Assembly (NCBI GenBank): GCA_947626045.1
Contig: CANQQS010000010.1
Location: forward strand, 1 to 34,498
Direction: 5' to 3'
DNA: 34,498 bases
Origin: an uncultured Clostridia bacterium
Lineage (GTDB): Bacteria > Bacillota > Clostridia > UBA1381
This document shows positions 768-30,838 of the stretch, one piece after another. Made by a program: the position numbers and the translations under genes. Numbering within the stretch: position 1 is the first letter of the stretch; every line of letters starts with the position of its first letter. The notes under the pieces were generated by a model, which worked only from the letters and a program-made list of their open reading frames with translations, had not been told where the DNA came from and searched no databases.

Positions 768-785
768 CGTAAAGGAGGAGTGTGT

Positions 786-2867
786 ATGGCAGTTTACAGA
801 TGCAGCGTGTGCGGTGCAATTTACGACGAGGAAAAGGAAGGCAAGCCGTTTTCGGAGCTTAAAGCGTGTCCCGTGTGCGGACAGCCGCCGTCGAAGTTTG
901 TTCGTGTAGACGAGCCGAAACAGGCGGCGGACATTCCGTCATATGACGGGGAGCTTGCGTATGACGCGCGGTTCGCGCGAAGTGACACATCGGCGCGGTA
1001 CATGGCTGAAATTCATGAAATGGCAGTGACGGGGCATTACATCAGCGCGGCTATGGGTACACAGCTTCCGCTGCCGAAGTGGGAGGATATTCTTATTCTC
1101 GGCGCGCAGCTTAACCCGCCGCCGCTGAATGACGGTGACAGCGTTGACACGCGCACGGTTATAGGAAAACACGCGAGGAAGCCTATGGTTCTGGAAAGTC
1201 CCGTGTACATATCGCATATGTCGTTCGGAGCGCTTTCAAAGGAGGTCAAGACGGCTCTTGCGAAGGGTTCGGCTATGGCAAAAACGGCTATGTGCAGCGG
1301 CGAGGGCGGCATACTGCCCGAGGAAAAGGCGGCGGCGTACAAGTACATATTTGAGTACATTCCGAATAAGTACAGCGTCACCGACGAAAATCTCAAAACG
1401 TCCGACGCTATTGAAATTAAAATCGGGCAGGGTACAAAACCCGGTATGGGCGGTCATCTGCCCGGTGAGAAGGTCACGCCAGAGGTCGCCGCGATACGCG
1501 GAAGGAATCCGGGCGAGGATATTCAAAGTCCGAGCAAATTCGCGGAGATAAACTCCAAAGAGGATTTAAAGGCTATGGTCTCAATGCTGCGTGAGCGGTC
1601 GGAGGGCAGACCGATAGGAATTAAAATTGCGGCGGGGCATATTGAAGATGATTTGGAGCACTGCGTATATGCCGAGCCTGACTTTATCACGATTGACGGG
1701 CGCGGCGGCGCGACGGGTTCAAGTCCGTATTTTCTGCGTGAGGCTACGACCGTTCCGACGATTTACGCGCTTGCGCGTGCAAGGAAATATCTCGACAGCG
1801 TAAATTCCGATATTTCGCTCGTCATAACAGGCGGTCTGCGCGTCAGCGCCGATTTCGCAAAGGCGCTCGCTATGGGTGCGGACGCGGTGGCTGTGGCAAG
1901 CGGCGCGCTGATTGCGGCGGCGTGCCAGCAGTACAGAATATGCGGAAGCGGTAAATGTCCCGTCGGCGTCGCGACGCAGGATCCCGAGCTGCGCAAGCGG
2001 CTGAATGTTGACGCGGCGGCGCAGAGAACTGCGAATTATCTAAACGTGTCGCTTGCGGAATTAAAGACGTTCGCGAGAGTGACGGGACACACGTCGGTTC
2101 ACGAACTTTCGCTTGACGACCTCGTAACGACCGACGCGGATATAGCGAAATATACGGGCATAAAGCACGCGGGTGACGCGGCGGTTAATATTAAAAAGGA
2201 GCGTAAAGGTATGAAAAAGTACAGGTGCAAGGTATGCGGTGAAGTGTTTGAAGTACCCGAGGGCGAAACGGCGGTTTGTCCGCTCTGCAAGTCAACGGGA
2301 GATAAATTAGAGGAGGTAAAGGAAATGAAAACAAACAAGTACGCCGGAACACAGACGGAAAAGAACCTTGAGGCGGCGTTCGCGGGCGAGTCTCAGGCGA
2401 GGAACAAGTACACCTATTTTGCGTCGGTCGCGAAGAAGGAGGGCTACGAGCAGATGTCGGCGCTGTTTCTGAAGACCGCCGACAACGAGAAGGAACACGC
2501 GAAAATGTGGTTCAAGGAATTGAACGGTATCGGCAGCACTCCAGAAAATCTGAAGGAAGCGGCTGACGGTGAAAACTACGAGTGGACGGATATGTACGCC
2601 GGTTTCGCGGACACTGCCGAGAAGGAAGGCTTTACGGAGCTTGCGGCTAAATTCCGCGCCGTTGCCGAAATCGAGAAGCATCATGAGGAGCGTTACCGCG
2701 CGCTGCTCAAAAACATCGAGACGGCACAGGTGTTTGAAAAGAGCGAGGTTAAGGTTTGGGAGTGCCGCAACTGCGGTCACATCTGCGTCGGCACAAAAGC
2801 GCCGGAGGTTTGCCCCGTTTGCAATCACCCGCAGAGCTTCTTTGAGGTTCACGCCGAGAATTATTGA
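786..2867 (+). CDS. Rubredoxin / FMN glutamate-synthase-like / rubredoxin / rubrerythrin fusion (693 aa)
   Basis: A multidomain redox protein. Residues 1-40 are a rubredoxin-like knuckle (Cys6, Cys9, Cys28, Cys31). Residues about 80-470 match the FMN-binding domain of glutamate synthase (GltB central region): [38 protein letters not shown], and a C-x5-C-x4-C 3Fe-4S motif before PVGVATQ. Residues 476-513 are a second rubredoxin-like knuckle (Cys481, 484, 498, 501). Residues 514-693 are a rubrerythrin with a diiron four-helix bundle (Glu535 in [14 protein letters not shown] at 568-571) and a C-terminal rubredoxin (CRNC, CPVC). There is no amidotransferase domain, so it is not a complete glutamate synthase. 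ATG 786 follows AAAGGAGG at 7 bases; a GTG at 780 is also possible. Being behind perR, it probably reduces peroxide or O2, with the flavin domain feeding electrons to the diiron site (inference). Good internal ribosome sites lie before codons 476 and 514. Confidence 0.85.
2196..2213 (+). promoter_or_regulatory. Internal ribosome binding site and ATG at domain joint 1
   Basis: AAGGAG (2196-2201) lies 9 bases before an in-frame ATG (2211) that begins exactly at the second rubredoxin domain ([10 protein letters not shown]). A separate rubredoxin-rubrerythrin polypeptide of 218 aa could be initiated here. Confidence 0.5.
2311..2327 (+). promoter_or_regulatory. Internal ribosome binding site and ATG at domain joint 2
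   Basis: AGGAGG (2311-2316) lies 8 bases before an in-frame ATG (2325) that starts the rubrerythrin proper ([10 protein letters not shown]). This is as good as the ribosome site of the whole gene and suggests a fossil or active start for a 180-aa rubrerythrin. Confidence 0.6.
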
Positions 2868-9787: not shown

Positions 9788-11023
9788 TTACTGGTCGCTC
9801 TCCTTCATAAGTCCCTGCATATATTTGTCCATCGCATCGGCGACCTGTTTTGAGTACGCCGCGGCTTCGACGACCGTTTTCGCGCCGCGTACAACATCGC
9901 CCGACGCGAATATGCCGTCGCGCGTCGTTTCGCCGAAGGTGTTCGTTACGAGCAGTCCCTTGTCGTTTACTTCAAGTCCCGACGTTGTTGACACTATTCT
10001 GTCTTTGGGACCTTGGCTTATCGCAATTATCGTGCTGTCGGCGGAATATAGACTTTCCGTGCCTTTTATAGGCGTGAGCGTACCCTTGCCGTCACATTCA
10101 AGTTCAACGAATATCGCGCCCTCGTCCACTATCTCCACAGGCTCTACGTGTACGATAAATTCAACGCCGTCAATCTTCGCGTAATCGACTTCGCGCTCGC
10201 TCGCGGCGAGGTGGTCGCTTCTTGAGAATACGCGCACCGTGCGCGCGCCGTGACGGAGTGCCGTTCTTGCGACGTCCATAGCGCTGTTGCCCGCGCCGAT
10301 TATGTTCACCGTCTCGCCGAGACGGTACACGTCGGGGTTTGTGAGGTAGTTTATCGCGTAATGCACGTTGCCGAGCGTCTCGCCCTTTATGTGGAGCGTG
10401 TTCGGTCTCCATACGCCCGTGCCGATAAATATCGCGCTGTAGCCGTCGCGGAACATGTCGTCAATGCTTATCGTCGTGCCTATGGAGGTGTTCGGGCGTA
10501 TTTTTATGCCCATTTCCCACATTTTGCGCTTATAGCGCGCAAGTATCGTTTTAGGCAGGCGGAACTCGGGTATGCCGTACTGAAGCACGCCGCCTATCTT
10601 TTCCTTCGACTCGAACACCGTTATGTCGTAGCCGCGCTGCGCAAGTATCATCGCTATCGTTATTCCGGCGGGGCCCGAGCCGATTATGCCGACGCGCATC
10701 CCGTTTTTCTCAATTTCAGGGAATTTGAGCTTGTCGAAATAGTTGTCCGATATGTAGTTTTCAATACTTGAAATATGCACCGGCGCGCCCTTATGGTTCA
10801 GCACGCAGTGTCCCTGACACTGTTTCTCGTGGTTGCATATCATTGAGCAAATCATCGAGAGCGGGTTATTATCAAAAAGCATCGCGCCCGCCTTGTTTAT
10901 GTCGCCGCCGAGGAATGTATGTATCATGTCCGGTATGGGCGTGTGTATCGGACATCCCTCGCGGCACATCGGTTTTTTGCAGTTCAAACAGCGTTTCGCT
11001 TCACTTATAACATTTATTGCCAT
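9788..11023 (-). CDS. GltD-like NAD(P)-dependent iron-sulfur flavoprotein (411 aa)
   Basis: Pyridine-nucleotide oxidoreductase of the glutamate-synthase small-subunit/NfnB group, which passes electrons between NAD(P)H, FAD and iron-sulfur partners. The N-terminal 4Fe-4S module has Cys12, 15, 20 and 24 (CLNCKKPMCREGC) and a second Cys set in CSMICNHEKQCQGHC. The FAD-binding GIIGSGPAG is near residue 113, the GGVLQYGIPEFRLPK motif follows, the NAD(P) site IIGAGNSAMD is near 240, and the C-terminal FAD motif is FASGDVVRGAKTVVEA. About 411 aa is slightly short for GltD. It stands alone between two promoters with no gltB beside it. It could supply electrons to the GltB-like fusion at 786, but that pairing is only an inference. 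Confidence 0.88.
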   Translation of the reverse strand: MAINVISEAKRCLNCKKPMCREGCPIHTPIPDMIHTFLGGDINKAGAMLFDNNPLSMICSMICNHEKQCQGHCVLNHKGAPVHISSIENYISDNYFDKLKFPEIEKNGMRVGIIGSGPAGITIAMILAQRGYDITVFESKEKIGGVLQYGIPEFRLPKTILARYKRKMWEMGIKIRPNTSIGTTISIDDMFRDGYSAIFIGTGVWRPNTLHIKGETLGNVHYAINYLTNPDVYRLGETVNIIGAGNSAMDVARTALRHGARTVRVFSRSDHLAASEREVDYAKIDGVEFIVHVEPVEIVDEGAIFVELECDGKGTLTPIKGTESLYSADSTIIAISQGPKDRIVSTTSGLEVNDKGLLVTNTFGETTRDGIFASGDVVRGAKTVVEAAAYSKQVADAMDKYMQGLMKESDQ

Positions 11024-12624: not shown

Positions 12625-14537
12625 TCCTCATACCCTCTTTCCTCTATCGTCACGCGCAGCTGTTCCCATTCCTCCATAAGCGCGTCCGTTTCGGCGTTTA
12701 CCGCCGCGATTTTTTCCGTTATCTCGCCAGCCTTTATATAGTCCATGGCGATTTCGGGATTTTCAAGCTCCTTCGTGAGCCGCGCCGCTTCGTCCTCTTT
12801 GGCGGTTATTTCGTCCTCGACGCGTGCGTAACGGTTCAGGATTTTGCGTTTCTCGGCTTCGGCACGTTTCTGCTCCTTGTAGTCCGCCGCGCCGCCCGTT
12901 TCCTTTTTGGCGCTTTTTTCAGCCGCGCCGCTCTTTCGCGCGGCAAGGTAATCGTCGTAGCCGCCGATATAATTCTCTATGCCGTTCGGTGTGAGGTACA
13001 GAACGCGGTCGGCAAGCTTGTTTATAAAATATCGGTCGTGCGACACCATCAGCAGCGTGCCATCATAATCCGAGAGCGCGTTTTCGAGTGCCTCGCGGGA
13101 GTAGATGTCAAGGTGATTCGTCGGCTCGTCCATGATAAGCAGGTTGACGCTTTTAAGCATAAGTTTTACCAATTCCACCCTCGCCCGTTCGCCGCCCGAC
13201 AATGTTTGTATTTCCTTAAACACATCCTCGCTGCGGAACAAAAACACCGCAAGGGCGTTTCGTATCTCGGTCTGCGTCATTTTCGGGTACTCGTCCCACA
13301 CCTCGTCTATAACGGTCTTGTCCATATGCAAACTTTCCTGCGCCTGGTCGTAGTAGCCTATATGAATGTTCGCGCCGATTTTGCAGCTTCCCTCGGTCAT
13401 GTCGTATTCGCCGATAAGGATTTTCAGAAGCGTCGTCTTGCCGCAGCCGTTGGGTCCCAAAAGAAACACCTTTTCGCCTTTTTTTATCAGCATGTCCGCG
13501 CCGCGGAAAAGCCGCGTGTCCCCGAACGTCATACCGAGGTTTTCCGTTTCTATAACGTCCTGTCCACCGCCTGCGCACGCCTTAAACGAAAAGCGCGTCC
13601 TGTCGGCCTCGCGCTGCGGGGCGGTGAGGTTTTCCTCAAGCTTTTCTATGACCTTTATTTTGCTTTCGGCGGTCTTTATGTTCTTTTCCCTGCCCCACCT
13701 GCGCTGCTGCTCGACTATGCCCTCAAGGCGGTTTATCTCCTTAACGGTGTTCTCGTAGCTGCGCCGCTCGGTCTTGCGCTCGACCTCGCGCTTCGCGGCG
13801 TACTCGCTGTAATTTCCGCTGTGCGAGTAAAACCTGCCGTTCTCTATCTCGAACGTCCTGTTCGTCACGCGGTCGAGGAAATAGCGGTCGTGCGATATGA
13901 TTATGAACGCGCCGCCGTAATTCTTCAAAAAATCCTCAAGCCACTCCACGCTGTCGATGTCGAGGTGGTTCGTCGGCTCGTCGAGCAGGAGAAGATTCGC
14001 GTCCGACAACAGTATCTTGGCAAGCGCGACACGCGTTTTCTGACCGCCCGACAGCTTGTCGGCGCAAAGGTTTATTTCGTCCTCGGTAAAGCCAAGACCG
14101 ATAAGCGCGGCTTTCGCCTTCGACTTGTAGTAAAAGCCGTCAAGCTCTGCGAACCGCTCCTGAAGATACGTCTGCTTTTTTACAAGCTCTTCAACGTTGC
14201 CGCGCCCATGCTCTATGTCAAAACGCACGTCGTCAAGCGCTTCCTCTATCTTCATGACATCGGAAAAAACCGTGAGTGTTTCCTCCCACACGGTTTTCTC
14301 ACTGCCCGCGACGCTGTACTGGTCGAGGTAGCCTATTTTCAAATCTTTGCTCTTGTATATTTCGCCGCCGTCAATGTCAATTTCGCCCGTTATCATCTTT
14401 ATGAGCGTGGACTTGCCCGCGCCGTTTACGCCGACAAAGCCTATTTTGTCCGCGCTGTCAACGCTGAACGAAACGCCCTCAAAAAGTGTCTCGTCCGCGA
14501 ATGTTTTTTTAAGGTTGCTCGCGTTTATAAGTATCAT
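12621..14537 (-). CDS. ABC-F family ATPase (638 aa)
   Basis: Two ABC domains without membrane segments, so a ribosome-associated ABC-F factor (Uup/YdiF type) rather than a transporter. First domain: Walker [10 protein letters not shown] (36-44), LSGGQ (162-166), [12 protein letters not shown] (182-193). Second: GPNGCGKTT (361-369), LSGGE near 447 and [12 protein letters not shown] near 470. The linker at about 245-310 is charged and helical, as in the P-site tRNA-interacting motif. The C-terminal 90 residues form a Lys/Glu-rich coiled coil typical of Uup/YdiF. Cellular role is probably rescue of stalled translation; antibiotic-resistance function cannot be told by eye. It heads a four-gene operon from the promoter at 14568-14596. 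Confidence 0.92.
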
Positions 14538-15353: not shown

Positions 15354-15776
15354 TCACCCGCTTATTCTCTTGCTCATTGTCACGCGCGTGCCCTTGCCGA
15401 CCTCGCTTTCGACCTCAACGCTGTCCATAAACGCCTCCATAATCGTAAAGCCCATACCCGACCGCTCCATTTCAGGCTTGCCGGTAAAAAGCGGCTCTCG
15501 CGCGCGGCGTATGTCGGGTATGCCCGCTCCGTCGTCCGATATTACAAATTCAACGGTGTCGTCAAATATGCTGCCCTCCATTGTAACGCTGCCGTACTCG
15601 TTGTCGTAGCCGTGAATTATTGAGTTCGTCACCGCCTCGGACACAGCCGTTTTTATTTCCGAAAGCTGATCGACCGTGGGATCGAGCTCCAATATAAACG
15701 CCGCCGCGACAGTCCGCGCAAAACGCTCATTGTCGGAGCTTGCGGGAAATTCAAGGCGCATACTGTTCTTATACAT
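15354..15776 (-). CDS. spoIIAB: Anti-sigma F factor / serine kinase SpoIIAB (140 aa)
   Basis: GHKL-fold kinase that binds SigF and phosphorylates SpoIIAA. The N box is [12 protein letters not shown] (about 45-56), the G1 box is ISDDGAGI and the G2 region is [11 protein letters not shown]. The start overlaps the end of spoIIAA by 8 bases, and GGAGGCGG inside spoIIAA serves as its ribosome site. Gene order is the standard spoIIA order. Confidence 0.95.
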
Positions 15777-16116
15777 TGCACACCGCCTCCTTCAGTCCGT
15801 CCTCAAGGCTGTCCGTGACGATTACGAGCCTGTTCAGACCCGACATTGATATGATACGCTTTATATTGTCCGACGCGCCGTACACAACCACCCTGCCGCC
15901 GAGCGCGGCTGTAATCTTGCTGCGTCCCATTATCATGCCTATTCCAGATGAGTCCATAAACGTGACCGCGCCAAGGTCGAACGCGACGTTTTTCGCGCCC
16001 GTGCGCGCAAGCTCGCGGTCTACGCTCTCCCTTATTCCCGCCGCGGCGTGGTGGTCAAGCTCGCCCGTCACTCTCACGACAAGCGCGCGGTATTTGCCCG
16101 ATAAGTACAGTTCCAT
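15769..16116 (-). CDS. spoIIAA: Anti-anti-sigma factor SpoIIAA (115 aa)
   Basis: STAS-domain protein that releases SigF from SpoIIAB when unphosphorylated. The motif [13 protein letters not shown] has the phosphorylatable serine at 56/57. Full-length and first in the operon, with AGGAGGAAAG before the ATG. The upstream AT-rich stretch (16141-16200) should hold a sporulation promoter, but I could not assign a SigH or SigF consensus with confidence. Confidence 0.95.
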
Positions 16117-29006: not shown

Positions 29007-29007
29007 C

Positions 29008-29036
29008 TTGACAAAATATGTGAAATGTGGTATAGT
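29008..29036 (+). promoter_or_regulatory. Opposing-RNA promoter, 29-kb cassette 1
   Basis: TTGACA (29008-29013), 17 bases, TATAGT (29031-29036). It starts two bases after the stop codon of the transglycosylase gene. Confidence 0.85.
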
Positions 29037-29042
29037 TTAGAT

Positions 29043-29155
29043 AACGAAGGAGCGGAAACATTCTGTTTCTATTCGTTTTAAGAGATTATTTGAGAATGAC
29101 ATCGTCATTCTACCCATAACCGTCCTATTTGCGAGATAGGGCGGTTATTTCTTTA
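29043..29155 (+). ncRNA. Putative opposing RNA of cassette 1 (about 110 nt)
   Basis: Runs from the predicted start site to the terminator ATAACCGTCCTAT / ATAGGGCGGTTAT (29116-29148) with U-rich tail TTATTTCTTT. It contains hairpin 1, GAAACA-TTC-TGTTTC (29055-29069), and hairpin 2, AGAATGAC-ATC-GTCATTCT (29093-29111). It overlaps only the last codons of the peptide ORF on the other strand. Confidence 0.7.
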
Positions 29156-29207
29156 TCCAGATTACAATTAGCAAAATTATGATTAAATCAATCGTTAATT
29201 CGCTCAT
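29145..29207 (-). CDS. 20-aa hydrophobic peptide, cassette 1
   Basis: Encodes MSELTIDLIIILLIVIWIKK. ATG at 29207 is preceded by GGAAAGGTGC, a usable ribosome site. The form is acidic N-terminus, one membrane-length helix and Lys-Lys C-terminus, typical of type I toxin peptides, but without the Fst proline or WL pattern. The same peptide is encoded in cassette 2 with one synonymous codon change (TTA to CTA), which supports translation. The final AAG AAA TAA codons also supply the U-tract of the opposing RNA terminator. The function as a toxin is inferred; it could be another small membrane protein. Confidence 0.72.
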   Translation of the reverse strand: MSELTIDLIIILLIVIWIKK

Positions 29208-29281
29208 ATAGCACCTTTCCGAAACAGACCGCCCCGCTCCGGTTATCAAGGTCTCACAGATTTCTCCGTCACCTGTCAATC

Positions 29282-29310
29282 AGTATATCATATTGGAATT
29301 TATATTTCAA
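29282..29310 (-). promoter_or_regulatory. Peptide mRNA promoter, cassette 1
   Basis: Minus strand TTGAAA (29310-29305), 17 bases, TATACT (29287-29282), giving a leader of about 68 nt before the ATG at 29207. Confidence 0.8.
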
Positions 29311-29343
29311 TATATTTGTTTTGAAATGTAAAAAGTTATATAC

Positions 29344-29372
29344 TTGACAAAATAAATGGAATGTGATATAGT
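29344..29372 (+). promoter_or_regulatory. Opposing-RNA promoter, 29-kb cassette 2
   Basis: TTGACA (29344-29349), 17 bases, TATAGT (29367-29372). Spacing and boxes are conserved with cassette 1. Confidence 0.85.
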
Positions 29373-29378
29373 TTAGAT

Positions 29379-29491
29379 AACGAAGGAGCGGAAACATTCT
29401 GTTTCTATCACTAATAGTTAATTATTTTGTAGAATTACATAAATTCTACCCATAACCGTCCTATTTGTGAGATAGGGCGGTTATTTCTTTA
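29379..29491 (+). ncRNA. Putative opposing RNA of cassette 2 (about 110 nt)
   Basis: Same layout as in cassette 1: hairpin 1 GAAACA-TTC-TGTTTC (29391-29405), hairpin 2 now GTAGAATT-ACATA-AATTCTAC (29429-29449), and the terminator at 29452-29484 with a U-rich tail. Hairpin 2 differs in both arms from copy 1 yet still pairs. Confidence 0.7.
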
Positions 29492-29543
29492 TCCAGATTA
29501 CAATTAGCAAAATTATGATTAGATCAATCGTTAATTCGCTCAT
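29481..29543 (-). CDS. 20-aa hydrophobic peptide, cassette 2
   Basis: The same 20-residue peptide as cassette 1, differing by a single synonymous base. GGAAAGGTAC precedes the ATG at 29543. Conservation of the protein next to a diverged RNA segment is evidence for selection on the peptide, or for a recent duplication in which only the RNA part has been allowed to change. Confidence 0.72.
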   Translation of the reverse strand: MSELTIDLIIILLIVIWIKK

Positions 29544-29617
29544 ACAGTACCTTTCCGAAACAGACCGCCCCGCTCCGGTTATCAAGGTCACACGGATTTT
29601 TCCGTCACCTGTCAATC

Positions 29618-29646
29618 AGTATATCATATTAAAGTGTATATTGCAA
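29618..29646 (-). promoter_or_regulatory. Peptide mRNA promoter, cassette 2
   Basis: Minus strand TTGCAA (29646-29641), 17 bases, TATACT (29623-29618). The -35 differs by one base from cassette 1. Confidence 0.78.
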
Positions 29647-29670
29647 TAGATTTGAAAATGTTAATGCGTT

Positions 29671-30594: not shown

Positions 30595-30629
30595 GAATAT
30601 TTAATCTTAGTATTAACGCATTAAACCCC

Positions 30630-30838
30630 TCCGTCGGCTTTATAAGCTATTGCTGCGCAATAGCTACACAGCCGACACCTCCCCTAGTAGGGGAGGCTTG
30701 CGATGAGGCTCCCCTGACAGGGGAGCTGTCACACGCAGTGTGACTGAGGGGTTTTTGCGGGCGACCGCAAGGGTCGCCCCTACGGTGCACATTTTCAAAA
30801 TTACGGATGTAGGGGACGGCGCCTCGACGTCCCGCATT
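30630..30838. repeat. Second cluster of dispersed palindromic repeats
   Basis: Contains a nested hairpin AGCTATTGC-TGC-GCAATAGCT (30645-30665) within TCGGCT...AGCCGA, the palindrome CCTCCCCTAGTAGGGGAGG (30678-30696), the module GAGCTGTC (30723-30730) to GACTGAGGGGTTT, and the same 26-mer as at 21813-21838 (30758-30783). No gene is visible in the 30523-30841 gap. Confidence 0.85.

What the first reader, a model, noticed from the sequence alone, without database searches (positions are those of the whole stretch)
29008..29646. Tandem 336-bp cassettes, each with a 20-aa membrane peptide facing an opposing RNA
Seen: two direct copies at an exact +336 offset. Each has a plus-strand promoter and a minus-strand promoter facing each other, a terminator between them that reads the plus RNA, and a 20-codon minus ORF for MSELTIDLIIILLIVIWIKK with a ribosome site. 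The only ORF difference is a synonymous TTA/CTA change. Known: type I toxin-antitoxin loci combine a tiny hydrophobic toxin and a convergent or antisense RNA, and tandem copies occur. Inference: a type I-like system distinct from Fst/TxpA by peptide sequence and by its inverted-repeat ends.
Basis: partly seen in the sequence, partly recalled or inferred. Interest (0 to 1): 0.85.

Follow-up and report, generated by a model that had tools for sequence, protein, structure and literature searches.

The report
Tandem peptide toxin and antisense RNA pair
Two side-by-side copies of a tiny gene cassette, each coding for a 20-residue membrane peptide and an opposing regulatory RNA, look like a self-silenced bacterial toxin system of a general kind already known, but belong to an unnamed and highly diversified branch found in up to ten copies per genome in gut Clostridia.

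Summary
Two 336-bp tandem copies (window 29007-29342 and 29343-29654) each carry convergent promoters, a terminator on the plus RNA and a 20-codon minus ORF; the ORFs differ by one synonymous base. It is far more than chance. The same cassette occurs about 10 times in this genome, in 35 of 70 genomes of its family (10 of 17 genera), and in diverged form in other Clostridia. Some 72 distinct peptides (18-34 aa, one hydrophobic stretch, 71 of 72 ending in two K/R/N residues) share the architecture. Peptides are under purifying selection (dN/dS 0.12-0.30). All 28 base pairs of the plus RNA model show two-sided changes. Each RNA folds best in its own sense. The peptide's basic tail and stop codon are, in nearly all copies, the antisense of the plus RNA's U-tract and terminator base. 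Best reading: a type I toxin-antitoxin family that works like txpA/RatA or bsrG/SR4 (3'-overlapping antisense RNA). Peptides and RNA match no library family, but the RNA model also finds the antisense partner of 20-22 of 29 Hol_Tox loci. So it is a new variant of a known kind. Transcription, translation and toxicity are untested.

The parts
29008..29036 (+). promoter of the antisense (antitoxin) RNA, copy 1 (TTGACA-17-TATAGT)
   Evidence: same element in 38 cassettes
29043..29155 (+). antisense (antitoxin) RNA, copy 1; start inferred from the promoter
   Evidence: covariance models R1 and R3
29040..29055 (+). left inverted-repeat end GATAACGAAGGAGCGG, copy 1
29049..29070 (+). 5' hairpin of the antisense RNA, copy 1
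   Evidence: helix 1: all 8 pairs with two-sided changes; folds better in this sense in 36 of 36
29079..29102 (+). copy-specific middle segment of antisense RNA 1 (11 of 24 identical to copy 2, 23-24 of 24 to its orthologue)
29116..29155 (+). intrinsic terminator of antisense RNA 1; its U-tract and stem base are the antisense of the peptide's KK-stop
29145..29207 (-). 20-aa peptide gene (putative toxin), copy 1: MSELTIDLIIILLIVIWIKK
   Evidence: dN/dS 0.30 in its subgroup
29214..29220 (-). ribosome site GGAAAGG, copy 1
29219..29247 (-). toxin mRNA leader hairpin with right inverted-repeat end GATAACCGGAGCGG, copy 1
29250..29273 (-). 5' stem-loop of the toxin mRNA (ACGGA-GAAA-TCTGT), copy 1
   Evidence: compensatory changes at 3 pairs, 13 cells, 0 of 500 shuffles
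29282..29310 (-). promoter of the toxin mRNA, copy 1 (TTGAAA-17-TATACT)
29344..29372 (+). promoter of the antisense RNA, copy 2
29379..29491 (+). antisense (antitoxin) RNA, copy 2
29452..29491 (+). intrinsic terminator of antisense RNA 2
29481..29543 (-). 20-aa peptide gene, copy 2 (identical protein)
29550..29556 (-). ribosome site, copy 2
29555..29609 (-). toxin mRNA leader with both hairpins, copy 2
29618..29646 (-). promoter of the toxin mRNA, copy 2 (TTGCAA-17-TATACT)

Best explanation
Each cassette is a type I toxin-antitoxin module. The minus strand makes a leader mRNA of about 70 nt plus a 20-codon ORF for a single-pass membrane peptide with a Lys-Lys tail. A stem-loop protects its 5' end, and in much of the family another hairpin holds the ribosome site. 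The plus strand makes an antisense RNA of about 115 nt (5' hairpin, middle hairpin, terminator) that runs head-on into the 3' end of the peptide gene. The two RNAs pair from the terminator inwards, and the duplex is probably cut by RNase III, so the peptide stays silent while the short RNA is made. If antisense transcription stops, for example after loss or stress, the peptide is translated and disturbs the membrane. Shown here: conserved parts, two covarying structured RNAs in the stated senses, a selected peptide. Inferred: transcription, pairing outcome, RNase III, toxicity.
For: 38 cassettes extracted by the architecture alone. Family-wide search: 35 of 70 genomes, 10 of 17 genera. Peptide dN/dS 0.30, 0.12 and 0.15 in three subgroups. 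Antisense RNA: 28 of 28 pairs changed on both sides, covariation 0.421 against 0.192 shuffled and under 0.1 slid. Toxin 5' stem compensatory. Antisense 5' hairpin and terminator fold better in plus sense, leader in minus sense, each 36 of 36 and beyond composition. Stop codon at one fixed place relative to the terminator in 45 of 50 distant members. 72 distinct peptides, 71 with two K/R/N residues at the end, all with a strongly hydrophobic stretch. Antisense RNA kept where the peptide gene is lost (L020, L055). The RNA model finds the partner of 20 of 29 Hol_Tox loci at E below 0.02, all convergent at the 3' side.
Against: No RNA-seq, ribosome profiling or toxicity data. The toxin mRNA has no recognisable terminator of its own. 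In the window's own subgroup the ribosome site is only partly paired (about 0.6). Base pairing between the two 5' regions is not better for cognate than for other pairs. The peptide matches no known toxin family. Absent from the phage and plasmid collections, so no sign of plasmid addiction.
Confidence: 0.82

Rival explanations
1. The peptide is not a toxin but a small regulatory membrane protein (for example one that modulates a transporter or kinase), whose level is set by the antisense RNA.
For: Toxicity is untested. Many small single-pass membrane peptides are regulators, and weak sub-threshold matches include ComI and RinB.
Against: Up to ten paralogues per genome with unrelated peptide sequences but one RNA architecture, presence/absence between close species, tandem arrays and solitary antisense RNAs fit toxin-antitoxin turnover better than a dedicated partner protein.
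Confidence: 0.13
2. A true member of the Fst/par family: convergent RNAs with a shared bidirectional terminator, and direct repeats that pair at the toxin start site.
For: Convergent promoters, a 5' stem on the toxin mRNA and, in two subgroups, a hairpin holding the ribosome site match the features listed for par in PMC7472228.
Against: No Fst hit in Pfam or NCBIfam, no PXXXG motif, ends are inverted rather than direct repeats, no U-tract on the toxin side of the terminator, and no cognate-specific pairing of the two 5' regions.
Confidence: 0.03
3. A small mobile or repetitive element (MITE-like) with terminal inverted repeats, spread without function as toxin-antitoxin.
For: Inverted-repeat ends, many dispersed copies, and a site occupied in one species and empty in others.
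Against: Promoters lie outside the inverted repeats. No target-site duplications were seen at the one occupied/empty comparison. Peptide reading frame and both RNA folds are under selection, and copies differ widely in sequence rather than being recent clones.
Confidence: 0.02

Closest known systems
txpA/RatA, bsrG/SR4, bsrE/SR5 (Bacillus subtilis; Pfam Hol_Tox PF16935 by my own knowledge)
   Same: Tiny hydrophobic peptide with charged C-terminus; convergent antisense RNA pairing with the toxin mRNA at the 3' ends (PMC6562991); antisense RNA of stem-loops ending in a terminator. Model R3 finds such an RNA beside 20-22 of 29 clostridial Hol_Tox loci.
   Different: No Hol_Tox match of the window peptide or its close relatives; peptides shorter (18-34 against 28-60 aa); toxin stop codon lies inside the antisense terminator; inverted-repeat leader hairpins.
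par/Fst of pAD1
   Same: Convergent promoters, protected 5' end of toxin mRNA, ribosome site held in a stem (part of the family).
   Different: Unrelated peptide, no direct repeats DRa/DRb, no bidirectional terminator.
SprG1/SprF1 (PepG1) of Staphylococcus aureus
   Same: Convergent layout (from memory); two distant clostridial relatives give weak PepG1 matches (E 0.03 and 7e-4, far below the cut-off).
   Different: Window peptide and its subgroup do not match; PepG1 is longer.
C. difficile type I modules (CD0956.2-RCd10, CD2907.1-RCd9 and others)
   Same: Clostridial type I pairs, often several per genome.
   Different: Toxins 34-59 aa, mostly prophage-linked (PMC6563280); the window region holds housekeeping genes.
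Ibs/Sib of Escherichia coli
   Same: Toxin of the same size class (IbsC 19 aa, PMC8309996), several repeated copies per genome.
   Different: By my knowledge the Sib RNA is antisense to the whole toxin gene including its start, and IbsC has no positively charged tail (PMC8309996).

Membership tests
type I toxin-antitoxin (general) | small hydrophobic peptide under selection as protein | tested here: met
   dN/dS 0.12-0.30, 72 distinct hydrophobic peptides
type I toxin-antitoxin (general) | structured antisense RNA overlapping the toxin gene | tested here: met
   covariation in 28 of 28 pairs; terminator antisense to last codons. Transcription itself not shown.
type I toxin-antitoxin (general) | peptide toxic, antisense RNA represses it | not testable with these tools
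   needs expression experiment
Hol_Tox (PF16935; TxpA/BsrG type) | toxin sequence matches the profile | tested here: not met
   no match at E up to 10 for the window peptide and its subgroups; best distant relative E 0.045, below cut-off
Hol_Tox (PF16935; TxpA/BsrG type) | convergent antisense RNA pairing at the 3' ends, of the same RNA family | tested here: met
   R3 hits convergent at the 3' side of 20 of 29 Hol_Tox loci at E<0.02; common origin likely, not proven
Fst/par | Fst peptide with PXXXG motif | tested here: not met
   sequence
Fst/par | bidirectional intrinsic terminator | tested here: not met
   no terminator on the minus strand
Fst/par | direct repeats giving 5' complementarity | tested here: not met
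   ends are inverted repeats; cognate 5' pairing -24.7 against -25.2 for non-cognate
Fst/par | 5' helix and ribosome-site stem in toxin mRNA | tested here: met
   5' stem covaries; ribosome site paired 0.7-0.96 in many D and W members, about 0.6 in the window
PepG1 (SprG1) | match to NF041589 | tested here: not met
   no match for window peptide; distant members below cut-off
any Rfam RNA family | match above gathering score | tested here: not met

The most novel reading that the evidence does not exclude
A clade-wide set of diversifying toxin-antitoxin cassettes in which one RNA chassis carries dozens of unrelated membrane peptides. The antitoxin terminator doubles as antisense code for the toxin's basic tail and stop codon. 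Tandem copies keep the same toxin but hold separate antitoxin recognition segments, each conserved between species, so that neighbouring copies are only partly cross-neutralised and loss of one copy is punished.
Probability: 0.3. Interest if true: 0.75.

Novelty: new variant of a known kind. Interest (0 to 1): 0.56.

Why it matters
It gives a testable, annotation-invisible family of 18-34 aa peptides and about 115-nt RNAs in gut Clostridia, with up to about ten copies per genome and no entry in the family libraries searched. The shared RNA chassis offers a sequence-based way to find type I systems whose toxins are too short to be found by homology. The tandem copies and solitary antitoxins give natural material for asking how such systems diversify and are lost.

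Tried and rejected
Rfam on the window and on relatives: nothing above threshold. Pfam, NCBIfam, PADLOC and PHROGs with about 26 peptides in the first two and 5-6 in the last two: nothing above cut-off. Viral contigs, phage and plasmid collections: no match. Pairing of the two 5' hairpins as the recognition step: not cognate-specific. A hok-like 5'-3' fold-back of the toxin mRNA (leader with the reverse complement of the antisense RNA's 5' end) pairs better for cognate ends (-40.2 against -36.4 within group and -29.9 between groups), but folding does not predict a change at the ribosome site (0.62 against 0.66 paired) and needs a transcript end that is unknown; kept only as a possibility. A U-rich terminator for the toxin mRNA was looked for and not found. 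A first pair count on one subgroup alone was uninformative because few columns vary; the wider alignment settled it.

Full report
OBSERVATION. The two cassettes are real: 29007-29342 and 29343-29654, 89% identical at an exact offset of 336. Each has a plus promoter TTGACA-17-TATAGT, a minus promoter facing it, an intrinsic terminator on the plus RNA, and a minus ORF of 20 codons with a GGAAAGG ribosome site. The two ORFs differ by one synonymous base. The minus strand has no terminator-like site.

RELATIVES. A DNA search of the window's own genome found four more cassettes with different peptides. Across the genus, BLAST alone found matches in 15 of 16 genomes. Extraction by architecture gave 38 cassettes in three close subgroups: MSELTIDLIIILLIVIWIKK-like (20 aa), MDLDILIRIVELIIILEIIRNIKK-like (24 aa) and MVHADWTWFIIQVLVIAMIIKWIKK-like (25 aa). 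Two covariance models of the plus RNA extended this. R1 hits 35 of 70 genomes of the family in 10 of 17 genera. R2 hits 22 of 95 genomes of the order, all in the window's family. The window's genome has about ten cassettes. Further tandem arrays occur: three copies about 310 bp apart in G020, two in each of G031, G012 and G007. Named records with the diagnostic sequence are rabbit-gut Clostridia MAGs, Oscillospiraceae HAN068 and Lachnospiraceae MD329.

THE PEPTIDE IS CODING. Nei-Gojobori dN/dS, start codon and the last four codons excluded, is 0.30, 0.12 and 0.15 in the three subgroups. In all, 72 distinct peptides of 18-34 aa have a hydrophobic core, and 71 end in two K/R/N residues. In 45 of 50 distant members the stop codon lies at the same place relative to the plus RNA model: the TTA at the base of the terminator stem is the stop, and the U-tract is the antisense of the lysine codons. 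At random positions an ORF meeting these criteria is found in 0.25% of trials.

BOTH RNAS ARE STRUCTURED. In 87 plus-RNA sequences all 28 pairs of three stems have changes on both sides; the covariation score is 0.421 against 0.192 in shuffles and under 0.1 when slid (the alignment was fitted to the structure and contains a few antisense matches). The 5' stem of the toxin mRNA keeps pairing through compensatory changes, and other subgroups put a different hairpin at the same place. The plus RNA's 5' hairpin and terminator fold better in plus sense and the toxin leader better in minus sense, in 36 of 36 cassettes each; a control region upstream does not. Part of the leader's difference is composition, but 31 of 36 exceed their own shuffles. 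Ribosome sites are 0.7-0.96 paired in many members of the other subgroups, about 0.6 in the window.

EVOLUTION OF THE TANDEM PAIR. G008 has the orthologous pair beside the same upstream gene. G009 and G005 have the same two flanking genes with only a 33-bp terminator between upstream gene and downstream region. Between the two tandem copies, antisense-RNA positions 29079-29102 are only 11 of 24 identical, yet each matches its orthologue 23-24 of 24. Predicted duplexes are -215 and -204 kcal/mol for cognate and -156 to -158 for crossed pairs, so separation would be partial. Two loci in one related genome (G011) keep the antisense RNA with the peptide gene deleted (L020, L055).

WHAT IT IS LIKE. 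The window peptide matches no family, and the RNA no Rfam family. A general model R3 hits 59 of 391 genomes of the class; 31 of 43 inspected class-level sites have a hydrophobic ORF by loose criteria. Independently found Hol_Tox loci have an R3 hit convergent at the toxin's 3' side in 20 of 29 cases at E below 0.02 (22 at E below 0.3). Two such pairs were found from both directions (G173, G266). In B. subtilis, txpA/RatA and bsrG/SR4 pair at their 3' ends, with RNase III cleavage and, for SR4, extended sequestering of the ribosome site (PMC6562991). I propose the same working principle here. Fst-type loci share the convergent promoters and leader stems but have direct repeats, a bidirectional terminator and the PXXXG peptide motif (PMC7472228), which this family lacks.

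LIMITS. No expression data, no toxicity test, unknown toxin mRNA 3' end. E-values of the in-session models are rough. Genomes are mostly MAGs. Shared RNA architecture with Hol_Tox loci could be common descent or strong convergence.

VERDICT. A type I toxin-antitoxin family in design, new in peptide sequences and in its compact overlap, widespread and diversified in gut Clostridia: a new variant of a known kind.

Noticed in passing
L020 (G011:C23, near 15774-15903) and L055 (G011:C15, near 10064-10189): Antisense RNA with intact promoter and terminator but the peptide gene deleted just past the terminator: solitary antitoxins.
   Followed up: partly
window 30620-30760: GC-rich intergenic repeat (AAACCCCTC..GTCACAC..GTGTGAC..AGGGGAG) that also stands in relatives next to cassette sites (L092 1230-1360, L020); looks like a dispersed genus-wide repeat.
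   Followed up: no
L009 1-130 (G000:C7, about 13300-13430): A second, different cassette (MEIIEMIVTLLIIIALIELIKYIKK) directly beside the C7 cassette, a mixed tandem.
   Followed up: partly
window 780-2867: Single ORF with glutamate-synthase, rubrerythrin and rubredoxin-like domains, an unusual fusion.
   Followed up: no
L056 (G005:C50) and L077: Peptide like the window's (MSDVQIMLILILLIIIYIKK) under a leader and antisense RNA of the other subgroup: peptides and RNA parts recombine.
   Followed up: partly
L092 1190-1225 and L093 1263-1295: At the cassette-free site a terminator 97-100% identical to the cassette terminator follows the upstream gene; it may be a remnant or the ancestral gene terminator.
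   Followed up: partly
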